Shown piece by piece: positions 7,939 to 55,193 of a stretch of 64,000 nt of DNA. The stretch covers positions 55,496,560 to 55,560,559 of the forward strand of contig OY987301.1 of assembly GCA_963920635.1 (NCBI GenBank). Direction: 5' to 3'. A model generated the notes under the pieces. That model searched no databases. It was given only the letters and a program-made list of their open reading frames with translations, and was not told where the DNA came from. Position 1 is the first letter of the stretch; each line of letters begins with the position of its first letter. This stretch comes from Pseudeuparius sepicola. Taxonomy: Eukaryota; Arthropoda; Insecta; Coleoptera; Anthribidae. Both the position numbers and the translations under genes were made by a program.

Positions 7939-8017
7939 TGTAACGGAATTTTTTTGTTATACTCCGTTACTACGTTTTTAAATAATTATTAACAACCTTG
8001 CACACAGGTTTGAGTAC
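7939..8017 (+). repeat. Truncated LTR start (79 bp)
   Basis: Starts TGTAACGGAATTTTTTTGTT and matches the first 79 bases of the solo LTR at 8244 with few differences, then changes abruptly into satellite sequence. It is a second insertion of the same LTR family, cut at its right side. Shared bases at the joint (tac/ac) suggest a microhomology join. Confidence 0.75.
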
Positions 8018-8243
8018 AAACGTGCCTAGACGATGAATTTACTAAAGGATCAGTTAATTACCGAAGCAATTAATTGATCATGGAGTATTATAACGATAGC
8101 ACACCCGAAGGTGCAGGACAAAGCCACTGGTCTTGATCGACAAAGGCTCACGCCACAACTACCGAGACCCGCCATCTACCGTCTCCACGTCGTCGGTTAA
8201 CCAACAGAAAACATTGATAGAAGAAGAAGAGCGATAGTCGACC
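8018..8243 (+). repeat. Partial 296-bp satellite monomer
   Basis: 226 bases matching the satellite at 10,383-12,290, from its acaaacgtgcc segment to the end of the monomer (gcgatagtcgacc). It is in phase with the array on the far side of the solo LTR, so the two pieces were once one array. The ribozyme part of this monomer is missing. Confidence 0.9.
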
Positions 8244-10382: not shown

Positions 10383-10384
10383 GA

Positions 10385-10429
10385 CCATATACAGTACTGT
10401 TTCGGGACGGTGATCCCTCATCAGTATGG
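10385..10429 (-). ncRNA. Hammerhead ribozyme motif, satellite monomer 1
   Basis: Minus strand: stem I CCATA with TATGG; core CTGATGA; stem II GGGA-TCACCG-TCCC; core GAA; stem III ACAG/CTGT around TA; A17 as cleavage-site base. Every core base fits the hammerhead consensus with no insertions. Predicted cleavage lies between minus-strand bases 10,390 and 10,389. Self-cleavage of a multimeric transcript would yield unit-length 296-nt RNA. Confidence 0.85.
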
Positions 10430-10680
10430 CTCACCCGACTATCAAGTCGTATAGACAAACGTGCCTAGATGATGAATTTACTAAAGAATCAATTAATTAC
10501 CTAAGCAATTAATTGATCATGGAGTATTACAACGATAGCACACCCAAAGTTGCCGGACAAAGCCACTGGACTTGATCGGCAAAGGCTCACGCCACAACTA
10601 CCGAGACCCGCCATCTACCGTCTCCACGTCGTCGGTTAACCAACAGAAAACATTGATAGAAGAAGAAGAGCGATAGTCGA

Positions 10681-10725
10681 CCATATACAGTACTGTTTCG
10701 GGACGGTGATCCCTCATCAGTATGT
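10681..10725 (-). ncRNA. Hammerhead ribozyme motif, satellite monomer 2
   Basis: Same core and stems II/III as monomer 1, but the 5' side of stem I is changed (plus strand reads tatgttcc after the core), leaving about 3 bp in stem I. Cleavage may be impaired. Confidence 0.7.
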
Positions 10726-10976
10726 TCCACCCGACTATCAAGTGGTATAGACAAACTTGCCTAGACGATGAATTTACTAAGGAATCAGTTAATTACCGAA
10801 GCAATCAATGGATCATGGAGTATTATAACGATAGCACACCCGAAGGTGCGGGACAAAGCCACTGGTCTTGATCGGCAAAGGCTCACGCCACAACTACCGT
10901 GACCCGCCATCTACTGTCTCCACGTCGTCGGTTAACCAACCGAAAACATTGATAGAAGAAAAAGAGCGCAAGTTGA

Positions 10977-11021
10977 CCATATACAGTACTGTTTCGGGAC
11001 GGTGATCCCTCATCAGTATGG
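10977..11021 (-). ncRNA. Hammerhead ribozyme motif, satellite monomer 3
   Basis: Matches monomer 1 at all core and stem positions. Confidence 0.85.
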
Positions 11022-11272
11022 CTCACCCGACTATCAAGTGTTATAGACAATCGTGCCTAGACGATGAATTTACGAAGGAATCAATTAATTAGCGAAGCAA
11101 TCAATTGATCATGGAGTATTATAACGATAGCACACCCGAATGTGCGGGACAAAGCCACTGGTCTTGATCGGCAAAGGCTCACGCCACAACTACCGAGACC
11201 CGCCATCTACCGTCTCCACGTCGTCGGTTAACCAACCGAAAACATTGATAGAAGAAAAAGAGCGCTAGTCGA

Positions 11273-11317
11273 CCATATACAGTACTGTTTCGGGACGGTG
11301 ATTCCTCATCAGTATGG
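11273..11317 (-). ncRNA. Hammerhead ribozyme motif, satellite monomer 4
   Basis: Core intact. Stem II has one change (plus strand gtgattcctc instead of gtgatccctc), giving one mismatch in its four pairs. Confidence 0.75.
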
Positions 11318-11568
11318 CTCACCCGACTATCAAGCGGTATAGGCAATCGTGCCTAGACGATGAATTTACTAAGGAATCAATTAATTAGCGAAGCAATCAA
11401 TTGATCATGGAGTATTATAACGATAGCACACCCGAAGGTGCAGGACAAAGCCACTGGTCTTGATCGGCAAAGGCTCACGCCACAACTACCGAGACCCGCC
11501 ATCTACCGTCTCCACATCGTCGGTTAACCAACAGAAAACATTGATAGAAGAAGAAGAGCAATAGTCGA

Positions 11569-11613
11569 CCATATACAGTACTGTTTCGGGACGGTGATCC
11601 CTCATCAGTATGG
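11569..11613 (-). ncRNA. Hammerhead ribozyme motif, satellite monomer 5
   Basis: Core and stems as in monomer 1; just outside the motif the text reads ggcccaccc. Confidence 0.85.
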
Positions 11614-11864
11614 CCCACCCGACTATCAAGTCGTATAGACAAACGTGCCTAGATGATGAATTTACTAAAGAATCAATTAATTACCTAAGCAATTAATTGA
11701 TCATGGAGTATTATAACGATAGCACACCCAAAGTTGCCGGACAAAGCCACTGGTCTTGATCGGCAAAGGCTCACGCTACAACTACCGAGACCCGCCATCT
11801 ACCTTCTCCACGTCGTCGGTTAACCAACCGAAAACATTGATAGAAGAAAAAGAGCGATAGTCGA

Positions 11865-11909
11865 CCATATACAGTACTGTTTCGGGACGGTGATCCCTCA
11901 TCAGCATGG
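11865..11909 (-). ncRNA. Hammerhead ribozyme motif, satellite monomer 6
   Basis: Core intact. In stem I one A-U pair next to the core becomes a G-U wobble (plus strand cagcatgg), so pairing is kept. Confidence 0.82.
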
Positions 11910-12160
11910 CTCACCCGACTATCAAGTGGTATAGACAAACGTGCCTAGACGATGAATTTACTAAGGAATCAGTTAATTACCGAAGCAATCAATTGATCAT
12001 GGAGTATTATAACGATAGCACACCCGAAGGTGCGGGACAAAGCCACTGGTCTTGATCGGCAAAGGCTCACGCCACAACTACCGAGACCCGCCATCTACCG
12101 TCTCCACGTCGTCGGTTAACCAACAGAAAACATTGATAGAAGAAGAAGAGCGGTAGTCGA

Positions 12161-12205
12161 CCATATACAGTACTGTTTCGGGACGGTGATCCCTCATCAG
12201 TATGG
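12161..12205 (-). ncRNA. Hammerhead ribozyme motif, satellite monomer 7 (truncated monomer)
   Basis: Identical to monomer 1 over the motif. The monomer itself breaks off at 12,290. Confidence 0.85.
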
Positions 12206-12290
12206 CTCACCCGACTATCAAGTGGTATAGACAAACGTGCCTAGACGATGAATTTACCAAGGAATCAATTAATTACCGAAGCAATCAATT

Positions 12291-26001: not shown

Positions 26002-26007
26002 GGTGCT
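26002..26007. repeat. Target-site duplication GGTGCT (left)
   Basis: Exact 6-bp match to 41,447-41,452 on the other side of the palindrome. On rejoining, a gypsy leader becomes continuous. Confidence 0.85.
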
Positions 26008-26093
26008 AGTAGTATAGCTATGTGCGTACGAGCACAATTTCCCCATGTATTTCTTATGGGAGCAAAATCCTGCACTTTTTTGACCAAACTTAC

Positions 26094-26510
26094 CCCCTCC
26101 ACTCCCAAACCACGCCCCCCAGCCAATCGCACCGACTCTGAACCCTGCCGAAGATGTCCGAGTTCGCTGACCTTCGCCCCTGCCGCGACCTTAGACCGCT
26201 CGACAGCGAGGGGTGCCGAAGGTGCCCGGCTTTCACCGACCGTTGACCTTCGCTTCAGATACCAACCCTACCGAAGGTGTCCGAGTCCCGCTTTCGCCGA
26301 TCGTTGACCCAGCCGCGACGCCGCGGACATGTCACGACTCGCAACTAATAAAAACCCTAAATCGTAATTAAGCCATGACGTCCCCCTGTCGACCTTTAGC
26401 CGCGGCCATGCATGGATTTTTGCTACCACCTCTGCCTGCGTATTTTTGCGTCCGCGACGCCGAGACATGTCGAGACTCGCAACTAATAAAAACCTAACAC
26501 CTATAGAAAA
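26094..26510 (+). repeat. GC-rich subterminal block with internal repeats
   Basis: Unlike the AT-rich rest of the arm. The unit gacatgtc.cgactcgcaac followed by taataaaaac occurs at about 26,325 and 26,465. Variants of ccgaaggtg(t/c)ccg(a/g) and ttcgccgatcg/ttcaccgaccg recur at 26,145-26,310. The mirrored block at 40,950-41,360 lies in a 233-codon plus frame (40,785-41,486) that runs out of the element into the gypsy leader, so it is not a conserved gene. Confidence 0.6.
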
Positions 26511-27260
26511 AATACCAGCTTGCAATATGTACGTGATATAATTCCGCTGAAAAAAAGTACTTTCTCTTTGTCGGAATAAGCGCCTATGAAACGAGCACGC
26601 TGATCTCATCGGTACTGGCGATAAAAAATTTGTAGTAAAAGTGTAATGAAGAATAGATATGAGATACATATGAGTGTATACATTTTCTTGACTACATTAC
26701 CTAAGGATGTATCAAAAATCCTCATATCTTCCTATATTTAGAGACTGCTCAAAAGGAAAGTGGACATTAAATTTGGGGCATAAATTAACCATTTTTAGTT
26801 GAGTTTATAACCATCTAATTTAGGTAAGTAAATTTCTTCAATTCCGAGAAAGCCAGGCCCTGTTTTAAATTACTTGACTAAAATATAAGAGGTGCAAAAT
26901 TCACCAGTTTTTAAAAATACTGACGTCACACGATTATCAAGTTGAAAGACCACTAGCTGGAAAACCCCATTTTGTGCAACGCGTTTCCTGTTTAAAATTT
27001 CACCCAGAAACAAAAAAAAAGGTACTAATTCTCACTTATGCCATGTTCACCGTATGATTTTTATACTATTCCGACTTCGAAAACCCAAAGGTATAAGTGT
27101 AGCGTGTGGAAAAAGGTGGAATTAAGGGTTTAAAACCCTTAAACGGTCTATATATGGAATAAAATGAGGGCATGCAACATGTTCTTCAATAATGAAAATT
27201 AAAACAATGTTCATTTTTGACTGTCCATTATCCTACCAAGAAAAAGCTTATAGCGTCTAA

Positions 27261-27540
27261 GCGACTATAAAAACGACTCTAAAAACGTCTAAACGACTCT
27301 AAAAAACGACTAGACGACTCGTAAAAACGACTAGACGATTCGAAAAACGACTAGACGATTCGGAAAAAATGACTAAACGACTCTGAAAACGACTAAACGA
27401 TTCTGGAAAACGACTAAACGACTCTGAAAAACGACTAGACGACTTGAAAAGCGACATACCATTGAATACCATCGAATACCATGAAATACCATTAAAGACC
27501 ATGGAATACTATCGAAAACCACGGAATACCATAAATGGTC
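27261..27540 (+). repeat. Two adjacent minisatellites (about 21 bp and 10 bp units)
   Basis: About 27,261-27,453 repeats cgactaaacgactctgaaaa-like units. About 27,455-27,540 repeats ataccatyga units. The right arm copy (39,913-40,192) has two more 10-bp units (20 bp). Confidence 0.85.
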
Positions 27541-27601
27541 TTGGATATCCCTGTGAAAAATTTGCCTCGGGGAGAGCATAAAAGGAAATTATCCGGGATC
27601 G

Positions 27602-27893
27602 ATGCTCTGTGATCGAAAGATATATAAGCCTTTGATAATACAATCACTCTCAGTTAAAGGCATGTTTTTGTCACTTGAGATTGAACCTAGGAGTTATGGT
27701 ATCCAACACACCAATGGCGGATTAGTCATGGGACAAATACCAGTAACTGTTGAAGATAACGTATTATGTATTGGAGATCAAAATTACCCTTACACCAGGT
27801 CTGTCTCAACTGCTTTTGAAGAACAAACCACAAGGTATTAATGAGAGTGACCTAAAAATATACAAACAATTGTTGATTATTACTAATTTTCGA
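27602..27893 (+). pseudogene. Degenerate short frame, possibly Polinton-associated (left arm)
   Basis: A 79-codon frame (27,602-27,838) is followed after a frameshift by NESDLKIYKQLLIITNFR in another frame (27,840-27,893). The order SYGIQ..., LVMGQIPV, NVLCIGDQNYPYT, a Leu/Phe-rich piece and then DL-x-x-YKQLL recalls the C-terminal domain of small uncharacterised proteins abundant in insect mobile DNA, which I associate with Maverick/Polinton elements. In those, a Gly-Leu-x-x-Leu-Leu stretch follows; here it is decayed (SVSTAFEE). This is pattern memory, not a search. The right arm has the same frame at 39,540-39,831. Confidence 0.35.
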
Positions 27894-30800
27894 TAGGTTC
27901 AACAAATCAGGTTTTAAAAGTATTTGTGTTTAGGTGCCTATGGTTTCATCTGGTATATGTTCCATACAGGATTCGAACCTTAGCCCACATTCCAAAGCCA
28001 AACACTCGGCATTTAAGTAAAATTCTAGGAAATGCTTGGCAGTGTGGTAATAATCTCGACGCGCTGTTGTAGCAGGGCTCCGCTGGCTCCCGCAGGCCTC
28101 GCCGGTCTCTGTAGACTCAGCAGGTCCCTTTAACGATGTGTACCGCAGGCTCCGATTAAATTAAAAAATTACTATTAACACTAAAATACCCGGACAATAA
28201 CCATCATTCCAACGCCAAAACACACCGACAGTAGTATTTCTGCGAATGCATCGCAGCCGGGCGCAAGGTGGATGACTCACATCCGCTAGCCGGAACTTGT
28301 CAGGACAGGTTGACAACCTAAAAACAATTCTCTCTACTTAGATAAAAATAGAATGTCCAATAAGATTTTTTCACACACTTTTTTATATAAGCCAGATAAC
28401 GTAACCATATAAGTATATATTAGAATATTATAAAATATTTAAGCCCCATATAGTTCGAATTTGAATGGGATATTATGTTACATGGGTAATATATCTCAAC
28501 ACTTCGTACACAAACAAAACTCGCTCGTTCTTTACAGTTTTATTACTGTGAATTCGGTACCTACTAAAGCGGCAGACTTGGGATGCCGCAGTAGCAAATA
28601 CAATATGAAGCGCAGCTCTGATGTATACTAAAAATGTTATTATCAAACTTGAGACGCACACATATTTAAAAATATAAATACCGCCGGATGAATGCAAGGC
28701 CAATTTACGGAATATAGCAAAACAATTAGATTATGGACATGGATATTAATTTCTTTAGGTAAAGGTAATAAACATTTGATACTATCGACAGGAGTCTACG
28801 CAAAATAATTGTATCAGTATTCAGCAAATAAAAAAGTTATGGGTACCCGTCACCGATGAAAAAGTATACAAAACTGATAAAATGTTCGTGGCATCTTGTA
28901 TATTAAAATATTTAATCGCGTATCTAAGTTGTTATTTTATTCATTGCCTATCCCACAAATTTGGATTTTTAGCTCTTGTAATCGCTCGATCACGATTGAA
29001 ACTACACTCATAAAATGTTTAAAAAATGCCCACCCCACGTGATCGCTCGACAAAAGCAAAACGTGCAAAGTGGCTACTGCTCGAGGTTTGACCTTTGTCC
29101 TTAGGGACACGTGTGACCCAGTTGATGTAGAATCTAAAAAAACCCTGTAAATCATACTTCCATAGCATAGAATCTAAAATCCCCCGGTACAGTACGGATG
29201 AAAATTTCAAACCAGGCATAATCAACATGTACGTTCAAAGTAAAAAAAACTTGTCGGTCAACTGTTTAACCCCGAAATTTTGTTGATTTCTAGGAATAAA
29301 AAGAAATACTGCGATTGTGAGTCCAAAGCTATTTACGCTATCAAATTCGTTTAAAATGCGAATGATAATTTGCCGCATTAAAACCAGGCGTGAAAAATTC
29401 AACATACGTCCCTAAGAAGTTCAACCAATTTTACCCTGGAAATACAACATTTTTAATGAATAAAATATCGAACATACAACAACACCCTTCTAAATATAGT
29501 ATAAATCATGGGTTTTTTTTGATAATGTGGAAAGCTAAACTGAAAATTGTTGCTAGAGGTTCTAAAAACCGGGGTGCCAAAAATCAACTATTATTAGAAA
29601 ATACGCTGATGTCATAATATAGCCGTCGATGTCACCGTTAGCGTGTCCTATGAAAATTGCGTTCTGCTTAATAAGGTGTAAAAAAAATCCATGACGGGGC
29701 TTAGATGAATAAATAAAGTTTGATGTATGTGAAAGTATAGACTAAATTTTCGTATAGCCCGCGTGATCGCTCGAGGTGGCGGTATCCTCTGGACTAGAAA
29801 ATATCATATCGGCTCAATCTCCAAACATTTTCATTTTGAATTATACGTTTTCATTGATGATAGATATAGCAAGAAAATTGGACTGGACTCGATATGAGAG
29901 ACATTAATCTAACTTTCACTAAACTGCACGTACTACTTAGAGGGTTGTAAGCCGTATTAATAAAAGCACCAGACTTGCTTAAAATTCATGGCTAAACGTT
30001 AACATAATGTCATACAAACATGCGGCACGCAAAATATTAAGAATAGATATATGAGCTCAAACATGTTGATCAAAAAATATATTAATTTCTGGCGATTTAG
30101 TTTACCAGTTATCATTTAAAAAACAAAACCTGGTCCCAATATTCAGTGAAAATAATAATTGAAAACTTTGAACCTTATAAACCACCACTAAATAGCGAGT
30201 CGGAAATAAGTAAAAAAAATATATATAAATATATTATTTTGATATTATAGTCGAAACTGAATTTATTGGGGTGAAGATGTAAGGAAATATTTTTAGCTAG
30301 GAAAAAGTAATGCAATTATCATAGGTACTGGTTGCAGAACCCATTGTCAGTTTTGCAAGGATTTTTGATACAAATATAATTGCTAACGTTTAATTTGTTT
30401 ATCCCATTTACGAAAATGATAACAAAATTGGATCAGACAAGATGTTTTTTCGAAGTATAGTTTTTAAACACAGGGTGCCACCACCGGTTTTACGATATAG
30501 GTTTAAAAATGCGACGCAAATACATAAAAAAAATACCCTAGAGATAAGAAAACAAAATACAACTCACCGAAAGGTTCTTGGTGATGTATAAAAAGAAATC
30601 AGGTTACATCTAATGCCCCAGACAGTAGAATAAACATCCCCGAGCGATGAGATATAACCAAACATCATCTTTCCAACGGCACAGTCATTTTCACGGGAAA
30701 AACAACCAGTAACCGTTCAAATTCCATAGATAGATACTGCCGTAATCCAAAATTTCACTGAACTACGCGTATCTATTATACTGAAGTAGGTACTGATACA

Positions 30801-31248
30801 CTTCCATCTTTCCAAAGAAAAACAAACACGAAACTCAGACTTTTCATATATTACAACGCCTCGATAGAGTCTTTGTGGCCACGACCGAGAATCTACTGAA
30901 ACAAGTGCGACGCATAGGACGTGAAAAGTGCCGAGTTGGTTTTATTAAACAATGAAACTTATACCTACGTATATATATAAAATAAATGAGAAATATGCCA
31001 GAGATTTGAAACCTAATTGTGTTGCAAGTTTGAGGTCCAAAAAAATATTGGTTTTAATTTTTTAAGGTGAGAAACACATCTAACAGCCAATTTGGAAATA
31101 TACAAGGCAAAAAAAAGTAGTGATGTGGCTGCCCCATTTTATGTTTTATACAGGTTGGATTATTTTAGAATAGTTGTTCAATAGACCGAGACAACATCAT
31201 AAACGCTTCCCGTTAGAACAGAATCTGATGAAAAGAAAAATTCCATCT

Positions 31249-31495
31249 GGGTCAAGCTACTAGATAACCAAAATAAAAAATACTGAACGTTATAAAATTT
31301 AAAAAAATCATATTTTCAACGGATTTTTATCCTCTGAAAATGGCGTAAAATTCAGTTTCACTGGGTCAAGCTAGGTGGTAACTATATAACCAAAATAAAA
31401 AAATACTGAACGTTATAAAATTAAAAAAAAAAAAATATTTTCATGGGATTTTTGTCCTCTGAAAATGACGTAAAATTCAGTTTCAATAAGTTACT
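31249..31495 (+). repeat. Tandem duplication, ~124-bp unit (left arm)
   Basis: The unit beginning gggtcaagct (31,249 and 31,371) and ending taaaattcagtttca occurs twice, with the shared middle aaaatactgaacgttataaa. Mirrored in the right arm at about 35,940-36,185. Confidence 0.85.
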
Positions 31496-32499
31496 AATTG
31501 GGGTAATAGGGGAAAAATCTTAAATAGGAATTCTGAGACAACGAGGCTGAGAGTAAATAACATACAAAAATCTTGTGCGTTGACTTTCAACTCAATTTAA
31601 TAATTAGGTTTAATAACGACAATTTTCTCGATTATCTAGAATCAAAAATATTGCAAGTGACAATTCACTATTTTCTCGACATTATGTAAAGCCTTATTAT
31701 TGCGTCGTAAATTAAAAGATCCAAAAATATTGGCATCAATTGTTTAGTAAATGTGATTAAAATATGTCTACTTTATCAACAGTTATTTGTAACAGCTTAT
31801 TATCTTGGAAGCGTAAACTCTTTGAATTTTTTAGACAAAAAGTTGTATTTTAATAATGGTCAGTTGGATTCCTTTTTGAATCATGTTTGCGTATTACCTA
31901 CAAGGATTTACAACCTCCAAACATAGAAATCGCTCATTTTAACCCGATTTAATAAAAATTTCACCAAAAACAATACTTTCACTCATATAATACACTTCTG
32001 ATTAATAAAAAGGCACTATTATAGTAATAATGAGATTTTCAATGGAATTTTTATAGACTGTTTGCCCATTTTGAGAGTCTGTTTGCTAGCTTTTGGGGGT
32101 ATTCCTTGATATTTTAGACGGATAAAAATGAATAACATTGTGTTTCCTAACTAAAAATACAAAACGCACTGTTGACTTTACTTCCGTGGATAGTAAGCCT
32201 ATAATACGTATAGAAAACAGATAAATATTCAGGTCAAGAAAAAAGTAGCCTAATTTACAAGTTTGGGAATCAAAAACTACCTTTTGTCTTTTAATTTTGA
32301 TGATAAAATACGTCTAATTCGTAAGTCAAATAAATGGGGCATCATGAAAGATATACTAATAATTGAACAAATGCTATCTCAGTTCTATAGGCACAAAGGT
32401 ACTATGGGTAGTAATAGTTTTGGGGTCAAAAGACAAGCTTTTAAATTTGTTAAGAAAATACGTCTAATGAAATTGAAAGTAGTAACTAGATTTTGGTTA

Positions 32500-33480
32500 A
32501 CATTTCGTTAACGCGTTGATGAATGTTTGATGCAAGTGAAAAGTAGATCGAATTTTCCAAAAAACGGTGACTGACCAAACAAGTTATTATAAAAAGTTGC
32601 TCGGGAGACCGAGGTAAAGAAAACGCCTCTCGTCCGAATATAATCTGAAATAAAATTCCATGATGGGGACTTAGGCGAATGTTTGATGCAAGTGAATAGT
32701 ATAGACCGAATTCCCGAAAAACGCCATTCGTTTGAATATAATAAAAAATCGAATAAGGAACGGGACTTATTAGACGAATATTTGATGCAAGTGGAAAAAT
32801 ATAGATAGATTTTTTCGAGTGACTGATAAAAATAGTTAGTCGGAAGGCCCCCAGATAACATTGATATTTTGTTTGAACAAAATCTGTAAAAAAAAATGTC
32901 AAGACCTGACTTAGACGAATGTTTGCAAGTGAAAAAAAAACAAAAAAAATATTAGACGAATGTTTGCAAGTGAAAAAAAAAAACAAAAAAATTATTAGAA
33001 AAGTTGATCGGAAGGTTTAACCTAGGAAACGCCTTTCATTCGAATAGAATATGACAAAAAAAAATCCGAGACGTGACTTAGACGAATGTTTGCAAGTGAA
33101 AAAAAAAACAAAACAAATTATTAGAAAAGTTGATCGGAAGGTTTAACCTAGGAAACGCCTTTCATTCGAATAGAATATGACAAAAACAATCCGAGACGTG
33201 ACTTAGACGAATGTTTGCAAGTGAAAAAGAAACAAAAAATTATCAGAAAAGTTGATTGGGAGGCCGAGGTAACCTAGGAAACACCTTTCATTCGAATAGA
33301 ATGTAACAAAAAAAAATTCCAAGACGTGGCTTAGACGAATGTTTGCAAGTGAAAAGCATACAGATTTTTTTTTTCGAAAAACGGCGGCTGATCAAAAATT
33401 ATTAGAAAAGTTGTTCGGGGCCGTGGTACCTAGGAAACGCCTTTCATTCAAACAAAATGCGACAAAAAAAATTTAGACAT
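32500..33480 (+). repeat. ~130-bp degenerate tandem repeat crossing the arm/spacer edge
   Basis: About seven units with the core gacttagacgaatgtttg, caagtgaaaa, a variable A-rich stretch, then aacgcctttcattcgaat and agaatatgacaaaa. The first units belong to the left arm, the rest to the spacer. Single degenerate units also occur elsewhere in the arm (near 29,690-29,760 and 31,190-31,250), so much of the arm may have grown from this unit. Confidence 0.85.
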
Positions 33481-34199
33481 AGATGAATAAGAATGCAAGG
33501 ACGATTGGAGTGATCTATAACCCTAAACAGAAGGGAGAAAATGCTCCTCAATAAGTCGAAATTTGTGTGTTTTCCGTATGATTCAATGAGATTTTTACAA
33601 ATTATTGGAAACTTAATGACGTGAGAAAAATAAAACGTCCATTGTCTGCTCACATTTTAGGAAATTTATCACAATTTATTCTAATTAATAATACCCTTTG
33701 TTTATGGAATCCCTAGTTAGCCAATGTGTCATGAGTAAGTATATGACAGGTCAAATACGTATATAATGTAAAGTAAAAATATAGTTAACAAGGCGTTAAC
33801 GAGCATTGACAACATGTTAACGAACGAGGTGCTAACAACGCGATAACTTAACTTTGACAACGCGTTAACGAAGCGTTGACGAGTGTGGACCCTCCAAATC
33901 TTAGGAGATACATTCGCAACCTTACACCGGATCACGCGTCACAAAGATGCTACCTTAAATTAATGCGTTGACAACTCGTTAATCCCAGGAGATACAATCG
34001 CAACTTACACCAGATCAAACTCAACTGTGGAATCTTGTGACGTCACAGAGATGCTACCTTACATTTCTTTTAGGTAGATAACCTAACCTAACATTATTGT
34101 CGCGGTGTCCAAGAGGTTAGCGACTGGTGAACCGATTGCCATTGGATTTGGGAGAGGTGTATCAGAGGCGGATTAAGTCAGTTTTGACCAATGGCAATG
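32923..34199. other. Spacer of the giant palindrome
   Basis: 1277 bp present once. The left 560 bp are ~130-bp tandem repeats; the rest is unique. At 33,780-33,880 the motif gttaacga and ttgacaa-like blocks repeat in close order (gcgttaacgagcattgacaa, catgttaacgaacg, gcgttaacgaagcgttgac). Below it, aggagatac...gatgctacctta occurs twice (about 33,903-33,955 and 33,988-34,060). No protein frame is convincing. The short run taacctaacctaaca near 34,079 is too short to call telomeric. Confidence 0.75.
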
Positions 34200-37100
34200 G
34201 CGTCTAAGTCACGTCTTGACATTTTTTTTTTACAGATTTTGTTCAAACAAAATATCAATGTTATCTGGGGGCCTTCCGACTAACTGTTTTTATCAGTCAC
34301 TCGAAAAAATCTATCTATACTTTTCCACTTGCATCAAATATTCGTCTAATAAGTCCCGTTCCTTATTCGATTTTTTATTATATTCAAACGAATGGCGTTT
34401 TTCGGGAATTCGGTCTATACTATTCACTTGCATCAAACATTCGCCTAAGTCCCCATCATGGAATTTTATTTCAGATTATATTCGGACGAGAGGCGTTTTC
34501 TAGGTTACCTCGGTCTCCCGAGCAAAATTTTCTAATAAGTATATTTTTTTTGTCAGTCGCCGGTTTTCGAAAAAAATCTGTATTCTTTTCACTTGCAAAC
34601 AGTCGTCTAAAATTTTCTTGGATTTTTTTTGTCACATTCTATTCGAATGAAAGGCGTTTCATAGGTTATCTCAACCTCCCGATCAACTTAATAATTTTTG
34701 GTCCGTCCCGATTTTCGAAAATTCTGCCTACTTTTCACTTGCATCGAATATCCGTCTAAGTCCCATTTTGTAACTATTTATGTCACTTTCTATTCGAAGG
34801 AAAGGCGTTTTCTAGGTTACATCGGTCTCCTGAGCAACTTTTTATAATAACTTGTTTGGTCAGTCACCGTTTTTTGGAAAATTCGATCTACTTTTCACTT
34901 GCATCAAACATTCATCAACGCGTTAACGAAATGTTAACCAAAATCTAGTTACTACTTTCAATTTCATTAGACGTATTTTCCTAACAAATTTAAAAGCTTG
35001 TCTTTTGACCCCAAAACTATTACTACTCATAGTACCTTTGTGCCTATAGAACTGAGATAGCATTTGTTCAATTATTAGTATATCTTTCATGATGCCCCAT
35101 TTATTTGACTTACGAATTAGACGTATTTTCTCATCAAAATTAAAAGACAAAAGGTAGTTTTTGATTCCCAAACTTGTAAATTAGGCTACTTTTTTCTTGA
35201 CCTGAATATTTCTCTGTTTTCTATACGTATTATAGGCTTACTATCCACGGAAAGTAAAGTCAACAGTGCGTTTTGTATTTTTAGTTAGGAAACACAATGT
35301 TATTCATTTTTATCCGTCTAAAATATCAAGGAATACCCCCAAAAGCTAGCAAACAGACTCTCAAAATGGGCAAACAGTCTATAAAAATTCCATTGAAAAT
35401 CTCATTATTACTATAGTGCCTTTTTATTAATCAGAAGTGTATTATATGAGTGAAAGTATTGTTTTTGGTGAAATTTTTATTAAATCGGGTTAAAATGAGC
35501 GATTTCTATGTTTGGAGGTTGTAAATCCTTGTAGGTAATACGCAAACATGATTCAAAAAGGAATCCAACTGACCATTATTAAAATACAACTTTTTGTCTA
35601 AAAAATTCAAAGAGTTTACGCTTCCAAGATAATAAGCTGTTACAAATAACTGTTGATAAAGTAGACATATTTTAATCACATTTACTAAACAATTGATGCC
35701 AATATTTTTGGATCTTTTAATTTACGACGCAATAATAAGGCTTTACATAATGTCGAGAAAATAGTGAATTGTCACTTGCAATATTTTTGATTCTAGACAA
35801 TCGAGAAAATTGTCGTTATTAAACCTAATTATTAAATTGAGTTGAAAGTCAACGCACAAGATTTTTGTATGTTATTTACTCTCAGCCTCGTTGTCTCAGA
35901 ATTCCTATTTAAGATTTTTCCCCTATTACCCCAATTAGTAACTTATTGAAACTGAATTTTACGTCATTTTCAGAGGACAAAAATCCCATGAAAATATTAT
36001 TTTTTTTTTAATTTTATAACGTTCAGTATTTTTTTATTTTGGTTATATAGTTACCACCTAGCTTGACCCAGTGAAACTGAATTTTACGCCATTTTCAGAG
36101 GATAAAAATCCGTTGAAAATATGATTTTTTTAAATTTTATAACGTTCAGTATTTTTTATTTTGGTTATCTAGTAGCTTGACCCAGATGGAATTTTTCTTT
36201 TCATCAGATTCTGTTCTAACGGGAAGCGTTTATGATGTTGTCTCGGTCTATTGAACAACTATTCTAAAATAATCCAACCTGTATAAAACATAAAATGGGG
36301 CAGCCACATCACTACTTTTTTTTGCCTTGTATATTTCCAAATTGGCTGTTAGATGTGTTTCTCACCTTAAAAAATTAAAACCAATATTTTTTTGGACCTC
36401 AAACTTGCAACACAATTAGGTTTCAAATCTCTGGCATATTTCTCATTTATTTTATATATATACGTAGGTATAAGTTTCATTGTTTAATAAAACCAACTCG
36501 GCACTTTTCACGTCCTATGCGTCGCACTTGTTTCAGTAGATTCTCGGTCGTGGCCACAAAGACTCTATCGAGGCGTTGTAATATATGAAAAGTCTGAGTT
36601 TCGTGTTTGTTTTTCTTTGGAAAGATGGAAGTGTATCAGTACCTACTTCAGTATAATAGATACGCGTAGTTCAGTGAAATTTTGGATTACGGCAGTATCT
36701 ATCTATGGAATTTGAACGGTTACTGGTTGTTTTTCCCGTGAAAATGACTGTGCCGTTGGAAAGATGATGTTTGGTTATATCTCATCGCTCGGGGATGTTT
36801 ATTCTACTGTCTGGGGCATTAGATGTAACCTGATTTCTTTTTATACATCACCAAGAACCTTTCGGTGAGTTGTATTTTGTTTTCTTATCTCTAGGGTATT
36901 TTTTTTATGTATTTGCGTCGCATTTTTAAACCTATATCGTAAAACCGGTGGTGGCACCCTGTGTTTAAAAACTATACTTCGAAAAAACATCTTGTCTGAT
37001 CCAATTTTGTTATCATTTTCGTAAATGGGATAAACAAATTAAACGTTAGCAATTATATTTGTATCAAAAATCCTTGCAAAACTGACAATGGGTTCTGCAA

Positions 37101-40100
37101 CCAGTACCTATGATAATTGCATTACTTTTTCCTAGCTAAAAATATTTCCTTACATCTTCACCCCAATAAATTCAGTTTCGACTATAATATCAAAATAATA
37201 TATTTATATATATTTTTTTTACTTATTTCCGACTCGCTATTTAGTGGTGGTTTATAAGGTTCAAAGTTTTCAATTATTATTTTCACTGAATATTGGGACC
37301 AGGTTTTGTTTTTTAAATGATAACTGGTAAACTAAATCGCCAGAAATTAATATATTTTTTGATCAACATGTTTGAGCTCATATATCTATTCTTAATATTT
37401 TGCGTGCCGCATGTTTGTATGACATTATGTTAACGTTTAGCCATGAATTTTAAGCAAGTCTGGTGCTTTTATTAATACGGCTTACAACCCTCTAAGTAGT
37501 ACGTGCAGTTTAGTGAAAGTTAGATTAATGTCTCTCATATCGAGTCCAGTCCAATTTTCTTGCTATATCTATCATCAATGAAAACGTATAATTCAAAATG
37601 AAAATGTTTGGAGATTGAGCCGATATGATATTTTCTAGTCCAGAGGATACCGCCACCTCGAGCGATCACGCGGGCTATACGAAAATTTAGTCTATACTTT
37701 CACATACATCAAACTTTATTTATTCATCTAAGCCCCGTCATGGATTTTTTTTACACCTTATTAAGCAGAACGCAATTTTCATAGGACACGCTAACGGTGA
37801 CATCGACGGCTATATTATGACATCAGCGTATTTTCTAATAATAGTTGATTTTTGGCACCCCGGTTTTTAGAACCTCTAGCAACAATTTTCAGTTTAGCTT
37901 TCCACATTATCAAAAAAAAAACCATGATTTATACTATATTTAGAAGGGTGTTGTTGTATGTTCGATATTTTATTCATTAAAAATGTTGTATTTCCAGGGT
38001 AAAATTGGTTGAACTTCTTAGGGACGTATGTTGAATTTTTCACGCCTGGTTTTAATGCGGCAAATTATCATTCGCATTTTAAACGAATTTGATAGCGTAA
38101 ATAGCTTTGGACTCACAATCGCAGTATTTCTTTTTATTCCTAGAAATCAACAAAATTTCGGGGTTAAACAGTTGACCGACAAGTTTTTTTTACTTTGAAC
38201 GTACATGTTGATTATGCCTGGTTTGAAATTTTCATCCGTACTGTACCGGGGGATTTTAGATTCTATGCTATGGAAGTATGATTTACAGGGTTTTTTTAGA
38301 TTCTACATCAACTGGGTCACACGTGTCCCTAAGGACAAAGGTCAAACCTCGAGCAGTAGCCACTTTGCACGTTTTGCTTTTGTCGAGCGATCACGTGGGG
38401 TGGGCATTTTTTAAACATTTTATGAGTGTAGTTTCAATCGTGATCGAGCGATTACAAGAGCTAAAAATCCAAATTTGTGGGATAGGCAATGAATAAAATA
38501 ACAACTTAGATACGCGATTAAATATTTTAATATACAAGATGCCACGAACGTTTTATCAGTTTTGTATACTTTTTCATCGGTGACGGGTACCCATAACTTT
38601 TTTATTTGCTGAATACTGATACAATTATTTTGCGTAGACTCCTGTCGATAGTATCAAATGTTTATTACCTTTACCTAAAGAAATTAATATCCATGTCCAT
38701 AATCTAATTGTTTTGCTATATTCCGTAAATTGGCCTTGCATTCATCCGGCGGTATTTATATTTTTAAATATGTGTGCGTCTCAAGTTTGATAATAACATT
38801 TTTAGTATACATCAGAGCTGCGCTTCATATTGTATTTGCTACTGCGGCATCCCAAGTCTGCCGCTTTAGTAGGTACCGAATTCACAGTAATAAAACTGTA
38901 AAGAACGAGCGAGTTTTGTTTGTGTACGAAGTGTTGAGATATATTACCCATGTAACATAATATCCCATTCAAATTCGAACTATATGGGGCTTAAATATTT
39001 TATAATATTCTAATATATACTTATATGGTTACGTTATCTGGCTTATATAAAAAAGTGTGTGAAAAAATCTTATTGGACATTCTATTTTTATCTAAGTAGA
39101 GAGAATTGTTTTTAGGTTGTCAACCTGTCCTGACAAGTTCCGGCTAGCGGATGTGAGTCATCCACCTTGCGCCCGGCTGCGATGCATTCGCAGAAATACT
39201 ACTGTCGGTGTGTTTTGGCGTTGGAATGATGGTTATTGTCCGGGTATTTTAGTGTTAATAGTAATTTTTTAATTTAATCGGAGCCTGCGGTACACATCGT
39301 TAAAGGGACCTGCTGAGTCTACAGAGACCGGCGAGGCCTGCGGGAGCCAGCGGAGCCCTGCTACAACAGCGCGTCGAGATTATTACCACACTGCCAAGCA
39401 TTTCCTAGAATTTTACTTAAATGCCGAGTGTTTGGCTTTGGAATGTGGGCTAAGGTTCGAATCCTGTATGGAACATATACCAGATGAAACCATAGGCACC
39501 TAAACACAAATACTTTTAAAACCTGATTTGTTGAACCTATCGAAAATTAGTAATAATCAACAATTGTTTGTATATTTTTAGGTCACTCTCATTAATACCT
39601 TGTGGTTTGTTCTTCAAAAGCAGTTGAGACAGACCTGGTGTAAGGGTAATTTTGATCTCCAATACATAATACGTTATCTTCAACAGTTACTGGTATTTGT
39701 CCCATGGCTAATCCGCCATTGGTGTGTTGGATACCATAACTCCTAGGTTCAATCTCAAGTGACAAAAACATGCCTTTAACTGAGAGTGATTGTATTATCA
39801 AAGGCTTATATATCTTTCGATCACAGAGCATCGATCCCGGATAATTTCCTTTTATGCTCTCCCCGAGGCAAATTTTTCACAGGGATATCCAAGACCATTT
39901 ATGGTATTCCGTGGTTTTCGATAGTATTCCATGGTCTTTAATGGTATTTCATGGTATTCGATGGTATTCCATGGTACTCGATGGTATTCAATGGTATGTC
40001 GCTTTTCAAGTCGTCTAGTCGTTTTTCAGAGTCGTTTAGTCGTTTTCCAGAATCGTTTAGTCGTTTTCAGAGTCGTTTAGTAATTTTTTCCGAATCGTCT

Positions 40101-41446
40101 AGTCGTTTTTCGAATCGTCTAGTCGTTTTTACGAGTCGTCTAGTCGTTTTTTAGAGTCGTTTAGACGTTTTTAGAGTCGTTTTTATAGTCGCTTAGACGC
40201 TATAAGCTTTTTCTTGGTAGGATAATGGACAGTCAAAAATGAACATTGTTTTAATTTTCATTATTGAAGAACATGTTGCATGCCCTCATTTTATTCCATA
40301 TATAGACCGTTTAAGGGTTTTAAACCCTTAATTCCACCTTTTTCCACACGCTACACTTATACCTTTGGGTTTTCGAAGTCGGAATAGTATAAAAATCATG
40401 CGGTGAACATGGCATAAGTGAGAATTAGTACCTTTTTTTTTTGTTTCTGGGTGAAATTTTAAACAGGAAACGCGTTGCACAAAATGGGGTTTTCCAGCTA
40501 GTGGTCTTTCAACTTGATAATCGTGTGACGTCAGTATTTTTAAAAACTGGTGAATTTTGCACCTCTTATATTTTAGTCAAGTAATTTAAAACAGGGCCTG
40601 GCTTTCTCGGAATTGAAGAAATTTACTTACCTAAATTAGATGGTTATAAACTCAACTAAAAATGGTTAATTTATGCCCCAAATTTAATGTCCACTTTCCT
40701 TTTGAGCAGTCTCTAAATATAGGAAGATATGAGGATTTTTGATACATCCTTAGGTAATGTAGTCAAGAAAATGTATACACTCATATGTATCTCATATCTA
40801 TTCTTCATTACACTTTTCCTACAAATTTTTTATCGCCAGTACCGATGAGATCAGCGTGCTCGTTTCATAGGCGCTTATTCCGACAAAGAGAAAGTACTTT
40901 TTTTCAGCGGAATTACATCACGTACATATTGCAAGCTGGTATTTTTTCTATAGGTGTTAGGTTTTTATTAGTTGCGAGTCTCGACATGTCTCGGCGTCGC
41001 GGACGCAAAAATACGCAGGCAGAGGTGGTAGCAAAAATCCATGCATGGCCGCGGCTAAAGGTCGACAGGGGGACGTCATGGCTTAATTACGATTTAGGGT
41101 TTTTATTAGTTGCGAGTCGTGACATGTCCGCGGCGTCGCGGCTGGGTCAACGATCGGCGAAAGCGGGACTCGGACACCTTCGGCAGGGTTGGTATCTGAA
41201 GCGAAGGTCAACGGTCGGTGAAAGCCGGGCACCTTCGGCACCCCTCGCTGTCGAGCGGTCTAAGGTCGCGGCAGGGGCGAAGGTCAGCGAACTCGGACAT
41301 CTTCGGCAGGGTTCAGAGTCGGTGCGATTGGCTGGGGGGCGTGGTTTGGGAGTGGAGGGGGTAAGTTTGGTCAAAAAAGTGCAGGATTTTGCTCCCATAA
41401 GAAATACATGGGGAAATTGTGCTCGTACGCACATAGCTATACTACT
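34200..41446 (-). repeat. Right arm of the giant palindrome
   Basis: Inverted copy of the left arm, 332 bp longer. The extra is mainly two or more additional ~130-bp units at about 34,505-34,820. Scattered single-base differences separate the arms, far fewer than separate the 24,210 copy from either arm. Confidence 0.93.
39540..39831 (-). pseudogene. Degenerate short frame, possibly Polinton-associated (right arm)
   Basis: Mirror of 27,602-27,893 with one visible residue change (Val to Ala in the GGL-MG segment) and the same frameshift before the DLKIYKQLL piece. The shared frameshift shows the frame was already dead before, or was homogenised after, the palindrome formed. Confidence 0.35.
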
Positions 41447-41452
41447 GGTGCT
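41447..41452. repeat. Target-site duplication GGTGCT (right)
   Basis: Exact match to 26,002-26,007. Confidence 0.85.
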
Positions 41453-52800: not shown

Positions 52801-55193
52801 TCTATTTGAGACAAAAATGGGAAAACATTACTTCTTGTGGTTTTTAGAACTCATAAAAAATTTTAGTTTTTTAATTATATTTTTGGTTTTTCTCTGAGAC
52901 TATGGTTCCAATACGTGACCACTAGGAAGAAACAATGTAAATTATCACATCAAAGTTTTATTGTATTTTAGACAAATGAACATTATTATTTTTTATTTCT
53001 CATGATACAACTTAAAGCAGTTTTTTTTTCGGAAAGGCACAACCCGACTTGACATGTAGCGCACATCCATCTTGTTCTATGAGGCTCCTTACTTGTGCTA
53101 CAAAGAGCACATCTTCTAGATGTACCGTGTTTTGGCATGTGCAGGCACTGTTCAAATCGCAATTCATAAGGCACGACTTGCTTGAAATGATTTATTACTG
53201 TGGGAGAAGAACTTTTGTGCTTCACTTCCGACTTCATACCAGTACCTATCAAACCCGAAGCCACCGAGATCCTAACCAATTTTAGGTTTGGTACTGCAGA
53301 TTGTGCTTTTTGTTTGAATATAATAAAAGAGTTTAGAACACACAAATCTATAAAGTACCATAATATTCGGTGCCACCATTTTTTCGATTTTCGGTCAATT
53401 TCATAGATGGATTTTAACATGTCCGTTTTGTCCACATAACCCATATGCTGGTTATAATCTTTAACCATTACTGGGCATGCCACAGTTTGCGAACTTCCAT
53501 CTTTTTGCTTACGGGTAACAGTTGTCTCAGTTGAGGGATTGTGATGGTTTCCAAGAAAAAGAACCACTTTGCGATCTTTCCATTTTATGAATGCAAGTCC
53601 ATCCTTGCTGACTCTCCAGTCAGATTGGCCTCTTGTTTGCAATTCTTTGTCAGTTTTTATATTGACTGGAAGGTCTTTTCTGTTGGCCCTTACAGTGCCA
53701 CAAGCATAAATGAAATCTGCCTGGAGGGATTTTTGTAACTGCGCAGAGTTGAAGAAATTGTCGAAATATATGTGGCAGCCCTTCCCCACCAAATCTAGTG
53801 TCAAGTCAAAAACTACTCTACTACCCAAACTTTTCTCAGGTTGATCTTTCGTTTTTCCAACATATATTTGGAATTGGCAAACATATCCATGTTCATCAGC
53901 TCGTATCCACGCCTTGTACCCTCGTTTGATAGGTTTTAGGGGCATATATTGCTTCAAGAAACTACGTCCTTTGAAGCGGATCATAGACTCGTCAATTGCT
54001 TGGTATTTTGAGGGATTATATGAGGTGCTAAAAGTTTCAGACAACGTGTCCAACAGCAGTCGAACTTTGTACAGCTTGTCATACTCTGGAGAACCGCGAT
54101 TAGGTAACAGTGAATTGTCAGCAAGGTGTATATTTCCCAACAGCCAAGCAAATCTATCTATTGACATTGCTGAGTGATCTCTTAGTTCTGGATTTGCCGA
54201 CCAATAATCACAATAACTGGGAAGTTTCTTTATACCCATCAAAATGTTTATACCAATGAAGGTCTCAATTTCTTTGGCGTTAGTTGGTGTATATGAAGAG
54301 TCACCTCCACGCTTCTGAAGAGCATACAAATTGGATTGGAATACAATTTTATCGATCAGTGTTTTGGGAAATAAATGCAAAAATACGTCCACTGGCTTCT
54401 CCAAATCGTCCGGGATCCGTGGACCAGCCTTTCCTCTAAATTCTTTAGTATTTGTAACCCAGTAATCTACTGACTGGGTCCATGTTGTTTTTTTTGCCAA
54501 TTCTCTGACCCTAAGCACAGACAGAGGAATATTGTCTTCTTCCTCCCACAAGCCATCATGAGCGATAAAATTTTCGTCACCAATTTCCCCATTGATGTCT
54601 CCGGTATGCTGGTTATTTTCAAAAATTATAGGTAAGTTAGCAATGTCAAACAAATCTTGAGTAATATTATTTTCGTCTAGATCACAATCTTCCTCCGATT
54701 CGCAATCCGATAGAATTTCATCTAGAAATGTGAATAGATCCTGGGAAGCCATTTCCTCTAACTCTTCAAATTTGAATGCTTTTTTCCCTGGAAGTGAAAA
54801 AAACATCCAGTTTCCTAGTGGCATCAGGTTGTAACCGCCAACTTTTTTTGGAAAAATAGACATTTTAAAATAAAAGAATAATATTAGAATCTCTATAGAA
54901 TTACACCTCTAACATATTTTTAACATTATAGTAACGAAAAACTTACCCGACATTACGAAAAAACAAAAAAATATCAAATTTTACTCATAACCTCGAAACG
55001 GGTAGGCACACACTTCTAACACGTTTACCACTGACCTAACTGTAAATCAGAATCAAAATATCAGCACATGATTAAGTGGGGAAGGTGTATAGGCAACTAC
55101 TACAATGGTTGGTTTCATGCCGATACCACTGGTAATGTGGGGAAAAATTCTTAAATTTGTGGTTTCACGGTAAAACCACTAGGGAACAAAGGG
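52801..55193 (-). mobile_element. piggyBac-family transposon in Gyp-2
   Basis: A transposase on the minus strand with a clear right end: minus strand ccctttgttccctagtggtt begins at 55,193, next to TTAA (55,194-55,197), the piggyBac target. The end sequence contains an inverted pair (tggtttcacggtaaaacca, 55,159-55,177). A matching left end with ttaaccctttg was not found. The left edge lies somewhere in 52,801-52,985, so that end may be lost. Gyp-2 lacks RT and RNase H at this place, meaning a deletion accompanied or preceded the insertion. Confidence 0.8.
52986..54863 (-). CDS. piggyBac-like transposase, intact frame
   Basis: 625 codons with no stop. Acidic N-terminus (residues 38-110), DDE_Tnp_1_7 core: Asp291 in YQAIDESMIRF, Asp368 in HIYFDNFF, Asp478 in MGYVDKTD, the three catalytic positions of piggyBac. 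A C-terminal Cys/His-rich domain (CALC...CATC...CLSEKKTALSC, about residues 583-620) is the DNA-end-binding cross-brace zinc finger of this family. Met38 (MASQDLFTFLDE) may be the real start, since the first 37 residues lack family features. Length is normal. It excises and inserts DNA at TTAA. It looks functional by sequence, though at least one transposon end seems to be missing. Confidence 0.93.
   Translation of the reverse strand: MSIFPKKVGGYNLMPLGNWMFFSLPGKKAFKFEELEEMASQDLFTFLDEILSDCESEEDCDLDENNITQDLFDIANLPIIFENNQHTGDINGEIGDENFIAHDGLWEEEDNIPLSVLRVRELAKKTTWTQSVDYWVTNTKEFRGKAGPRIPDDLEKPVDVFLHLFPKTLIDKIVFQSNLYALQKRGGDSSYTPTNAKEIETFIGINILMGIKKLPSYCDYWSANPELRDHSAMSIDRFAWLLGNIHLADNSLLPNRGSPEYDKLYKVRLLLDTLSETFSTSYNPSKYQAIDESMIRFKGRSFLKQYMPLKPIKRGYKAWIRADEHGYVCQFQIYVGKTKDQPEKSLGSRVVFDLTLDLVGKGCHIYFDNFFNSAQLQKSLQADFIYACGTVRANRKDLPVNIKTDKELQTRGQSDWRVSKDGLAFIKWKDRKVVLFLGNHHNPSTETTVTRKQKDGSSQTVACPVMVKDYNQHMGYVDKTDMLKSIYEIDRKSKKWWHRILWYFIDLCVLNSFIIFKQKAQSAVPNLKLVRISVASGLIGTGMKSEVKHKSSSPTVINHFKQVVPYELRFEQCLHMPKHGTSRRCALCSTSKEPHRTRWMCATCQVGLCLSEKKTALSCIMRNKK

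What the first reader, a model, noticed from the sequence alone, without database searches (positions are those of the whole stretch)
26008..41446. A 15.4-kb element that is one giant palindrome, with Maverick/Polinton-style ends and 6-bp target duplication
Seen: two near-identical inverted arms of 6.9 and 7.2 kb, spacer 1.3 kb, termini AGTAGTATAGC/GCTATACTACT, exact flanking GGTGCT on both sides, and a gypsy leader that becomes continuous when the element is removed. Known: Mavericks/Polintons have AG/CT termini, 6-bp duplications and 15-20 kb length, but carry polymerase B, integrase, ATPase and capsid genes and much shorter inverted repeats. Inference: a non-autonomous derivative made almost wholly of terminal inverted repeat, perhaps from fold-back synthesis in protein-primed replication. 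I know of no described class that looks like this.
Basis: partly seen in the sequence, partly recalled or inferred. Interest (0 to 1): 0.92.

Follow-up and report, generated by a model that had tools for sequence, protein, structure and literature searches.

The report
Mirror-image satellites of Polinton transposons
The genome holding this window (possibly a beetle's) carries a dispersed family of apparently gene-less DNA elements, often about 15 kb long, whose two halves are near-perfect mirror images; they are likely satellites of virus-like Polinton transposons and would keep their halves identical by copying one from the other each time they multiply.

Summary
Window 26008-41446 is a 15,439-bp inverted-repeat element with ends AGTAGTATAGC/GCTATACTACT and a perfect 6-bp duplication GGTGCT. 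It belongs to a family: 14 of 15 independent insertions whose two ends I read have different, perfect 6-bp duplications. The exact 15-bp tip occurs 296 times in the genome; of the first 100 listed, 78 lie in facing pairs.

One correction: the 1.3-kb 'spacer' is the inner end of the left arm, whose partner is missing from the right arm. The family's axis is a 43-bp spacer (34145-34187), found whole, doubled or in part in 8 of 10 copies.

Arms of one copy are mostly far more alike than arms of different copies, and 17 copy-private indels occur in both arms. The same genome holds PolB genes in six mirrored pairs; the one read through has 7,482-bp arms at 99.96%. (AGT)2//(ACT)2 ends and 6-bp duplications are those of Mavericks (PMC8097293).

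Best reading: a non-autonomous palindromic Polinton derivative replicating through a snap-back hairpin. Hairpin and helper are inferred; no PolB gene with this tip was found.

The parts
26002..26007 (.). left target-site duplication GGTGCT
   Evidence: sequence
26008..34144 (+). left arm, from the tip to the axis
26008..26183 (+). terminal module (176 bp) shared at 99.4% with a second palindrome type whose arms are otherwise largely different; begins AGTAGT
   Evidence: C11:22639202 copy; a further ~330 bp match at 83%, then only short matches; exact 15-mer tip 296 times in the genome
   Evidence: both-sided in other copies (E1, E6, E9)
34145..34187 (.). 43-bp axis spacer, predicted hairpin loop; 100% identical in E1, E3 and E9, in either orientation
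   Evidence: fold of the E9 axis (z = -36)
34188..41446 (-). right arm, shortened at its inner end
41447..41452 (.). right target-site duplication GGTGCT

Best explanation
The element is one copy of a dispersed family of apparently gene-less, near-perfect palindromes with 6-bp target duplications, most likely a non-autonomous Polinton/Maverick derivative that would be copied and integrated by Polinton proteins acting in trans. Shown: ends, duplications, dispersal, the 43-bp axis, concerted arms, and PolB-coding palindromes in the same genome. Inferred: initiation at the AGTAGT tip is protein-primed with jumping-back; the displaced strand snaps back on itself around the 43-nt loop into a hairpin of about 8 kb; repair or copying in that hairpin makes one arm the template of the other; a Polinton integrase then inserts the product. 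After insertion the palindrome decays, often near its axis, by one-sided deletions, as in the window copy.
For: Perfect, all-different 6-bp TSDs in 14 of 15 independent insertions with both ends read (list in 132); (AGT)2//(ACT)2 ends plus 6-bp TSDs are Maverick hallmarks (PMC8097293). Seven of 14 sized copies are 14.8-16.2 kb. Arms reach a 43-bp spacer in E1 and E9. Within-copy arm divergence is 0-0.40% in 9 of 10 copies in the outer block against a between-copy median of 2.47% (n=198). Own arms are sisters in 8 of 8 copies on concatenated blocks. 17 of 48 indel sites of 6 bp or more are private to one copy yet in both its arms (7 of the 17 in E6, several inside a tandem array). 86 PolB genes include 6 neighbouring pairs within 25 kb, all convergent and mirrored; C5:31295471-31310982 has 7,482-bp arms with 3 mismatches and a 1272-aa frame in each, PF03175; its tip AGTAGTAAGTAAGCC recurs at two other loci. 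A second arm type with the same 176-bp tip is on both strands at 12 of 15 loci with long matches (my count).
Against: No PolB gene of the 86 lies within 34 kb of the 72 tips compared, or within 46 kb of the 100 tips. The one tip known beside a PolB gene (C7:27.33 Mb, not in those lists) looks like a nested insertion. PolB palindromes share only the AGTAGT motif and the architecture with the window element, no DNA. No 6-bp duplication could be shown for a PolB palindrome; in each of the three examined one end is truncated or interrupted. The C11 copy lacks a clean duplication. The spacer was not found in E2 and E8. Arm mismatches are over-dispersed in E1 and E3 (2 of 5 copies). In the innermost block within- and between-copy divergence overlap. 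E11's arms differ by 4.7% and do not pair in either single-block tree; E2's fail in one of two; in places E1 and E2 arms are nearest to each other, down to 0.07%. Most copies were chosen by similarity at both ends, which favours palindromes.
Confidence: 0.57

Rival explanations
1. The palindromes insert as they are, and the arms are kept alike afterwards by ordinary gene conversion between the two arms in the chromosome, as in sex-chromosome palindromes.
For: Mismatches are clustered in E1 (inner end) and E3 (mostly the tip); high arm identity alone fits conversion.
Against: One-arm-only changes persist uncorrected: 25 of 48 indel sites (10 of them in E11), e.g. +605 bp in E2, -359 bp in E9, -1085 bp in E11, and the missing partner segment of the window copy. 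Mismatch spread is Poisson-like in E0, E9 and E10 (the test leaves out the last incomplete 500-bp bin, where most of the 27 and 18 innermost mismatches of E0 and E10 lie).
Confidence: 0.2
2. A cut-and-paste DNA transposon of another superfamily with 6-bp duplications, or a foldback-type element, made these long inverted repeats; the likeness to Polintons is convergent.
For: No Polinton gene found inside the element and no PolB gene found with the same tip; other superfamilies with 6-bp duplications exist (recalled).
Against: The end motif, duplication length and size together fit Mavericks (PMC8097293), and palindromic PolB elements with AGTAGT ends sit in the same genome.
Confidence: 0.17
3. 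Assembly artefact or chromosomal inverted duplication without transposition.
For: Long palindromes are a known failure mode of assemblers (recalled); C12 holds three copies with one shared flank, a segmental duplication.
Against: Exact 6-bp duplications, different at each of 14 sites; reversed-order control of the tip pattern 0 against 296; one-sided private deletions; a family tip inside the left arm of the C7 PolB palindrome.
Confidence: 0.03

Closest known systems
Polintons/Mavericks (Kapitonov & Jurka 2006; Pritham et al. 2007, recalled; vertebrate set in PMC8097293, passages and section 7 read)
   Same: (AGT)2//(ACT)2 ends, perfect 6-bp TSD, about 15 kb, dispersed copies
   Different: No polymerase, integrase, ATPase or capsid gene found; the inverted repeat is nearly the whole element instead of 46-1447 bp
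Adenovirus-type protein-primed linear genomes (PMC9863843, passages read; jumping-back in PMC8097293)
   Same: Direct terminal repeat usable for jumping-back; inverted ends that let a displaced strand anneal to itself
   Different: Adenovirus pan-handles pair only the short inverted terminal repeats (recalled); here the whole strand would pair. No terminal protein shown
Foldback elements of Drosophila (recalled)
   Same: Very long inverted repeats, mostly non-coding
   Different: FB arms are built of short tandem repeats and have longer duplications (recalled); here tandem arrays are a small part of the arms and the TSDs are 6 bp
Symmetric defective adenovirus genomes (recalled; a search for them found no paper)
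   Same: Near-complete palindromes that keep viral ends
   Different: Those are products of virus stocks; these are dispersed chromosomal copies

Membership tests
Polinton/Maverick | (AGT)2//(ACT)2 or (AG)3//(CT)3 end motif | tested here: met
   AGTAGT at both window ends and at most tips read; exceptions AGTAGATAGG in E11, C5:20396, C1:140428 and C1:9538, AGTAAT at one end of E3, TGTAGT at one end of C1:73 and C11:22.6
Polinton/Maverick | 6-bp target-site duplication | tested here: met
   14 of 15 independent insertions with both ends read
Polinton/Maverick | size 12.7-24.6 kb | tested here: met
   15,439 bp here; 14 sized copies run from 14.8 to 52 kb, 11 of them under 24.6 kb
Polinton/Maverick | PolB, integrase, ATPase, capsid genes | tested here: not met
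   36 frames of 55 aa or more in the left arm and centre, about 28 expected; the 10 longest scanned, none reaches a Pfam cut-off
Polinton/Maverick | short TIR (46-1447 bp in intact vertebrate copies) | tested here: not met
   arms of about 6.7 kb
Non-autonomous Polinton (shares tips with a coding partner) | coding partner with the same tip in the genome | tested here: inconclusive
   86 PolB genes against 72 and 100 tips: nearest 34.5 kb and 47 kb. Searches list only part of the tips and PolB genes
Protein-primed replicon | covalent terminal protein, linear extrachromosomal form | not testable with these tools
   needs DNA from the animal
Foldback (FB) | longer TSD and tandem-repeat arms (recalled) | tested here: not met
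   6-bp TSDs; tandem arrays are only a small part of the arms

The most novel reading that the evidence does not exclude
'Self-mirroring' Polintons: a class of mobile DNA, coding (two convergent PolB genes) and gene-less, whose replication passes through a genome-length snap-back hairpin, so that one half is the template of the other in every cycle and the two arms always reset to identity. The gene-less forms hold genome-sized length and may travel as packaged satellites of Polinton capsids.
Probability: 0.38. Interest if true: 0.92.

Novelty: new variant of a known kind. Interest (0 to 1): 0.8.

Why it matters
Polintons are thought to replicate by protein priming, but little tests this directly (recalled). 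A genome with 296 exact copies of one tip, two gene-less arm types and PolB-coding palindromes offers many natural records of the process. If arms are reset at each transposition, arm-to-arm divergence is a built-in clock for each insertion, as LTRs are for retrotransposons. The case also shows near-perfect palindromes of about 15 kb, usually unstable in chromosomes (recalled), standing at many places in an animal genome and losing DNA near their axis.

Tried and rejected
Coding function of the arms: no frame beyond shuffled expectation except a 176-aa one in a tandem-repeat stretch (95% point of shuffles 152); three Pfam hits, all below cut-off (Myb-like 8e-5, Med12 0.02, MPC 0.098), judged chance (the remaining 26 of 36 frames were not scanned). 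tRNA or structured RNA at the axis: none. Tip in IMG/VR viral contigs: none for one exact 20-mer. DNA likeness between PolB loci L052-L061 and the window arm: none. Tip of the 1254-aa PF03175 family: not found in the ~1250 bp fetched upstream of two copies, so whether it is the helper stays open. Papers on palindromic Polintons: the listings (10, 8 and 10 papers) show none by title or start of abstract; searches listed none either, one search found no paper. Opened: PMC6431247, PMC7805220, PMC9863843 (passages) and PMC8097293 (passages and one section). Species: only an inference; of 13 named relatives of the window's piggyBac protein among 120 listed, 8 are from beetles, the rest from ticks, a spider, an ant and a wasp.
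Full report
OBSERVATION. The window is C4:55496560-55560559 of a 769-Mb, 16-contig genome. Element 26008-41446 has inverted arms at about 99% identity, ends AGTAGTATAGC/GCTATACTACT, and GGTGCT on both sides. In the arm alignment 10 mismatches occur in the outer 6 kb and 27 in the last 0.7 kb.

A FAMILY. A search with the first 693 bp returned 67 matches from the 40 scored of 840 candidates, many in facing pairs. I read pieces of nine further copies (E1, E2, E3, E6-E11), both ends of four more places (C1:73, C1:55, C7:42, C1:144), the middle of two of those (C7:42.28 Mb and C1:144.44 Mb) and the outer 2.7 kb of both ends of C11:22.64 Mb. The nine copies, the two middles and the C11 copy show inverted arms: long in E1, E2, E3, E6, E9, E10 and E11, rearranged in E7, only about 1.9 kb in E8, which also holds a gypsy element. 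Of 15 independent insertions with both ends read, 14 have perfect, all different 6-bp duplications (listed); the C11 copy does not (TTAATA against AATAAT). Three C12 copies share one duplication and count once. Seven of 14 sized copies are 14.8-16.2 kb, the others 17.7-52 kb. The exact tip AGTAGTATAGCTATG occurs 143 times forward and 153 reverse, the reversed-order control 0 and 0. Of the first 100 places listed (C1 and C2 only), 78 form 39 facing pairs under 60 kb (0.7-52 kb, median 17.3 kb), against 5 neighbours in other orientations.

THE AXIS. In E1 and E9 the two sides come up to a 43-bp spacer (in E1 with a poorly matching repeat-rich stretch between about 7.2 and 7.7 kb); E3 and E7 keep it whole, E6 and E11 doubled, E10 in part, in either orientation; it was not found in E2 and E8. 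The E9 axis folds as an almost unbroken hairpin (z = -36). In the window the spacer is 34145-34187, and the DNA left of it (about 32918-34133) has lost its partner on the right. The 1.3-kb 'spacer' is thus the scar of a one-sided deletion (interpretation).

CONCERTED ARMS. In the block 200-1700 bp from the tip, arms of the same copy differ by 0-0.40% in 9 of 10 copies (E11: 4.7%), while arms of different copies differ by a median of 2.47% (198 comparisons). In the next two blocks the medians are 0.94% (143) and 1.01% (112) against 0-0.5% within copies other than E11. In the innermost block the contrast is weak: within 0.08-2.23% (five copies), between 1.35% (85). The closest arms of different copies, of E1 and E2, reach 0.27% and 0.07%. 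On concatenated blocks own arms are sisters in 8 of 8 copies, with support from 62 to 100 for the seven that carry a value; single-block trees break this for E11 (both) and E2 (one of two). Of 48 indel sites of 6 bp or more, 17 are private to one copy but in both its arms (7 of them in E6, several in the tandem array), 25 are in one arm position of one copy only (10 of them in E11), and 6 are shared by several copies, including a 447-bp segment missing from all six arms of E1-E3; some arms were covered only in part (my tally). So arms were equalised after the copies diverged, yet one-sided changes persist, which fits equalisation at copying better than continuous conversion. Mismatch spread is Poisson-like in E0, E9 and E10, leaving out the last incomplete bin, but clustered in E1 (inner end) and E3 (tip).

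A SECOND ARM TYPE. The C11 copy shares 176 bp of tip at 99.4% with the window copy, then about 330 bp at 83%, then only short matches; its arms too are inverted over the 2.7 kb read. A 1,200-bp piece of its arm (40 of 813 candidates scored) has long matches at 15 loci, on both strands at 12, though at C2:64.24 and C2:81.96 one strand has only 256 and 616 bp; ten further loci with only 250-400 bp at 81-90% were left out (my count). Four of six such loci whose tips I paired are mirrored to within one base, C11 to about 50 bases, and C2:84.17 has an extra 3.7 kb on one side.

PolB PALINDROMES. The genome has 152 PF03175 matches (87 of 1839 candidates scored). I carried over 126 rows, leaving out the 24 weakest listed, which are further parts of the same genes; 86 genes result. 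Six neighbouring pairs lie within 25 kb, all convergent, none tandem or divergent. Their matches are mirrored: exactly at C5, C7 and C3:44, exactly in three of four boundaries at C11 (the fourth, 6 bp off, is and was not put into), within 3 bp at C2 and 33 bp at C3:42. At C5 the arms are 7,482 bp at 99.96% with a 1272-aa PolB frame in each. At C7 and C3:42 only the outer ends were read; they match as inverted repeats at 98.7-99.6%. The tip AGTAGTAAGTAAGCC stands at C5 left, C3 left and C7 right with three different flanks. The right end of C5 is truncated, C3 right is truncated or interrupted, and C7 left carries a tip of the window's family at a GGTATT site, so no duplication of a PolB palindrome could be shown.

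HELPER. None of the 86 PolB genes lies within 34 kb of 72 tips or within 46 kb of the 100 tips. Both sets are partial.

COMPARISON. PMC8097293 gives, for intact vertebrate Mavericks, (AGT)2//(ACT)2 as the commonest ends, 6-bp duplications, 12.7-24.6 kb, TIRs of 46-1447 bp, and explains the end repeats by jumping-back in protein-primed replication. PMC9863843 describes displacement of one adenovirus strand, which can form a pan-handle. A palindromic genome would snap back over its whole length. That step is my inference. The element would work like a Polinton satellite; it is not filed as a Polinton, because none of the genes was found and its TIR is far longer.

LIMITS. No helper with the same tip was found; listings of tips and PolB genes were partial; most copies were selected at both ends; no reads, expression or population data; the empty site is untested; the host identification is a weak inference.

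Noticed in passing
G000:C7:27329801-27329870 (L062): A tip of the window's family lies at a GGTATT site inside the left arm of a PolB palindrome; the right arm has the uninterrupted site. Probably a nested insertion that dates one against the other; its far end was not read.
   Followed up: partly
tips of the copies read, bases about 15-29: Mosaic variation (TGCG/AGAG/CCGG/TCGG, then TACG/CACG/TTCT/TTCA): tips look shuffled between copies, and E3's two ends differ mostly here. Tip swapping between replicating copies would explain it.
   Followed up: partly
G000:C6:34302886-34326145: A second right arm ends at 34319982 with the same 14-base flank as the outer right end, so the right arm seems duplicated together with its flank.
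   Followed up: no
G000:C5:37029018 and C1:144458112: The left flank of one copy equals the right flank of the other over the 12 bases printed; repeat target or duplication.
   Followed up: no
G000:C12 (1.05 Mb contig): Three copies with the same flank and duplication about 231 kb apart and two PolB matches 235 kb apart: looks like tandem large-scale duplication of the contig.
   Followed up: no
G000 C1, C2 and others: A PF03175 family with many 1254-aa frames of near-equal score, apparently recently spread; its ends were not found.
   Followed up: partly
window 10383-12290: 6.4 copies of a 296-bp tandem repeat at 94%, with a related piece at 8016-8243.
   Followed up: no
window 52986-54908 (-): Long piggyBac-type frame; 8 of 13 named relatives listed are from beetles.
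   Followed up: partly
L023-L024 (copy E8): A gypsy-like element with a 589-aa frame after pol, env-like in position only, sits inside one palindrome.
   Followed up: no
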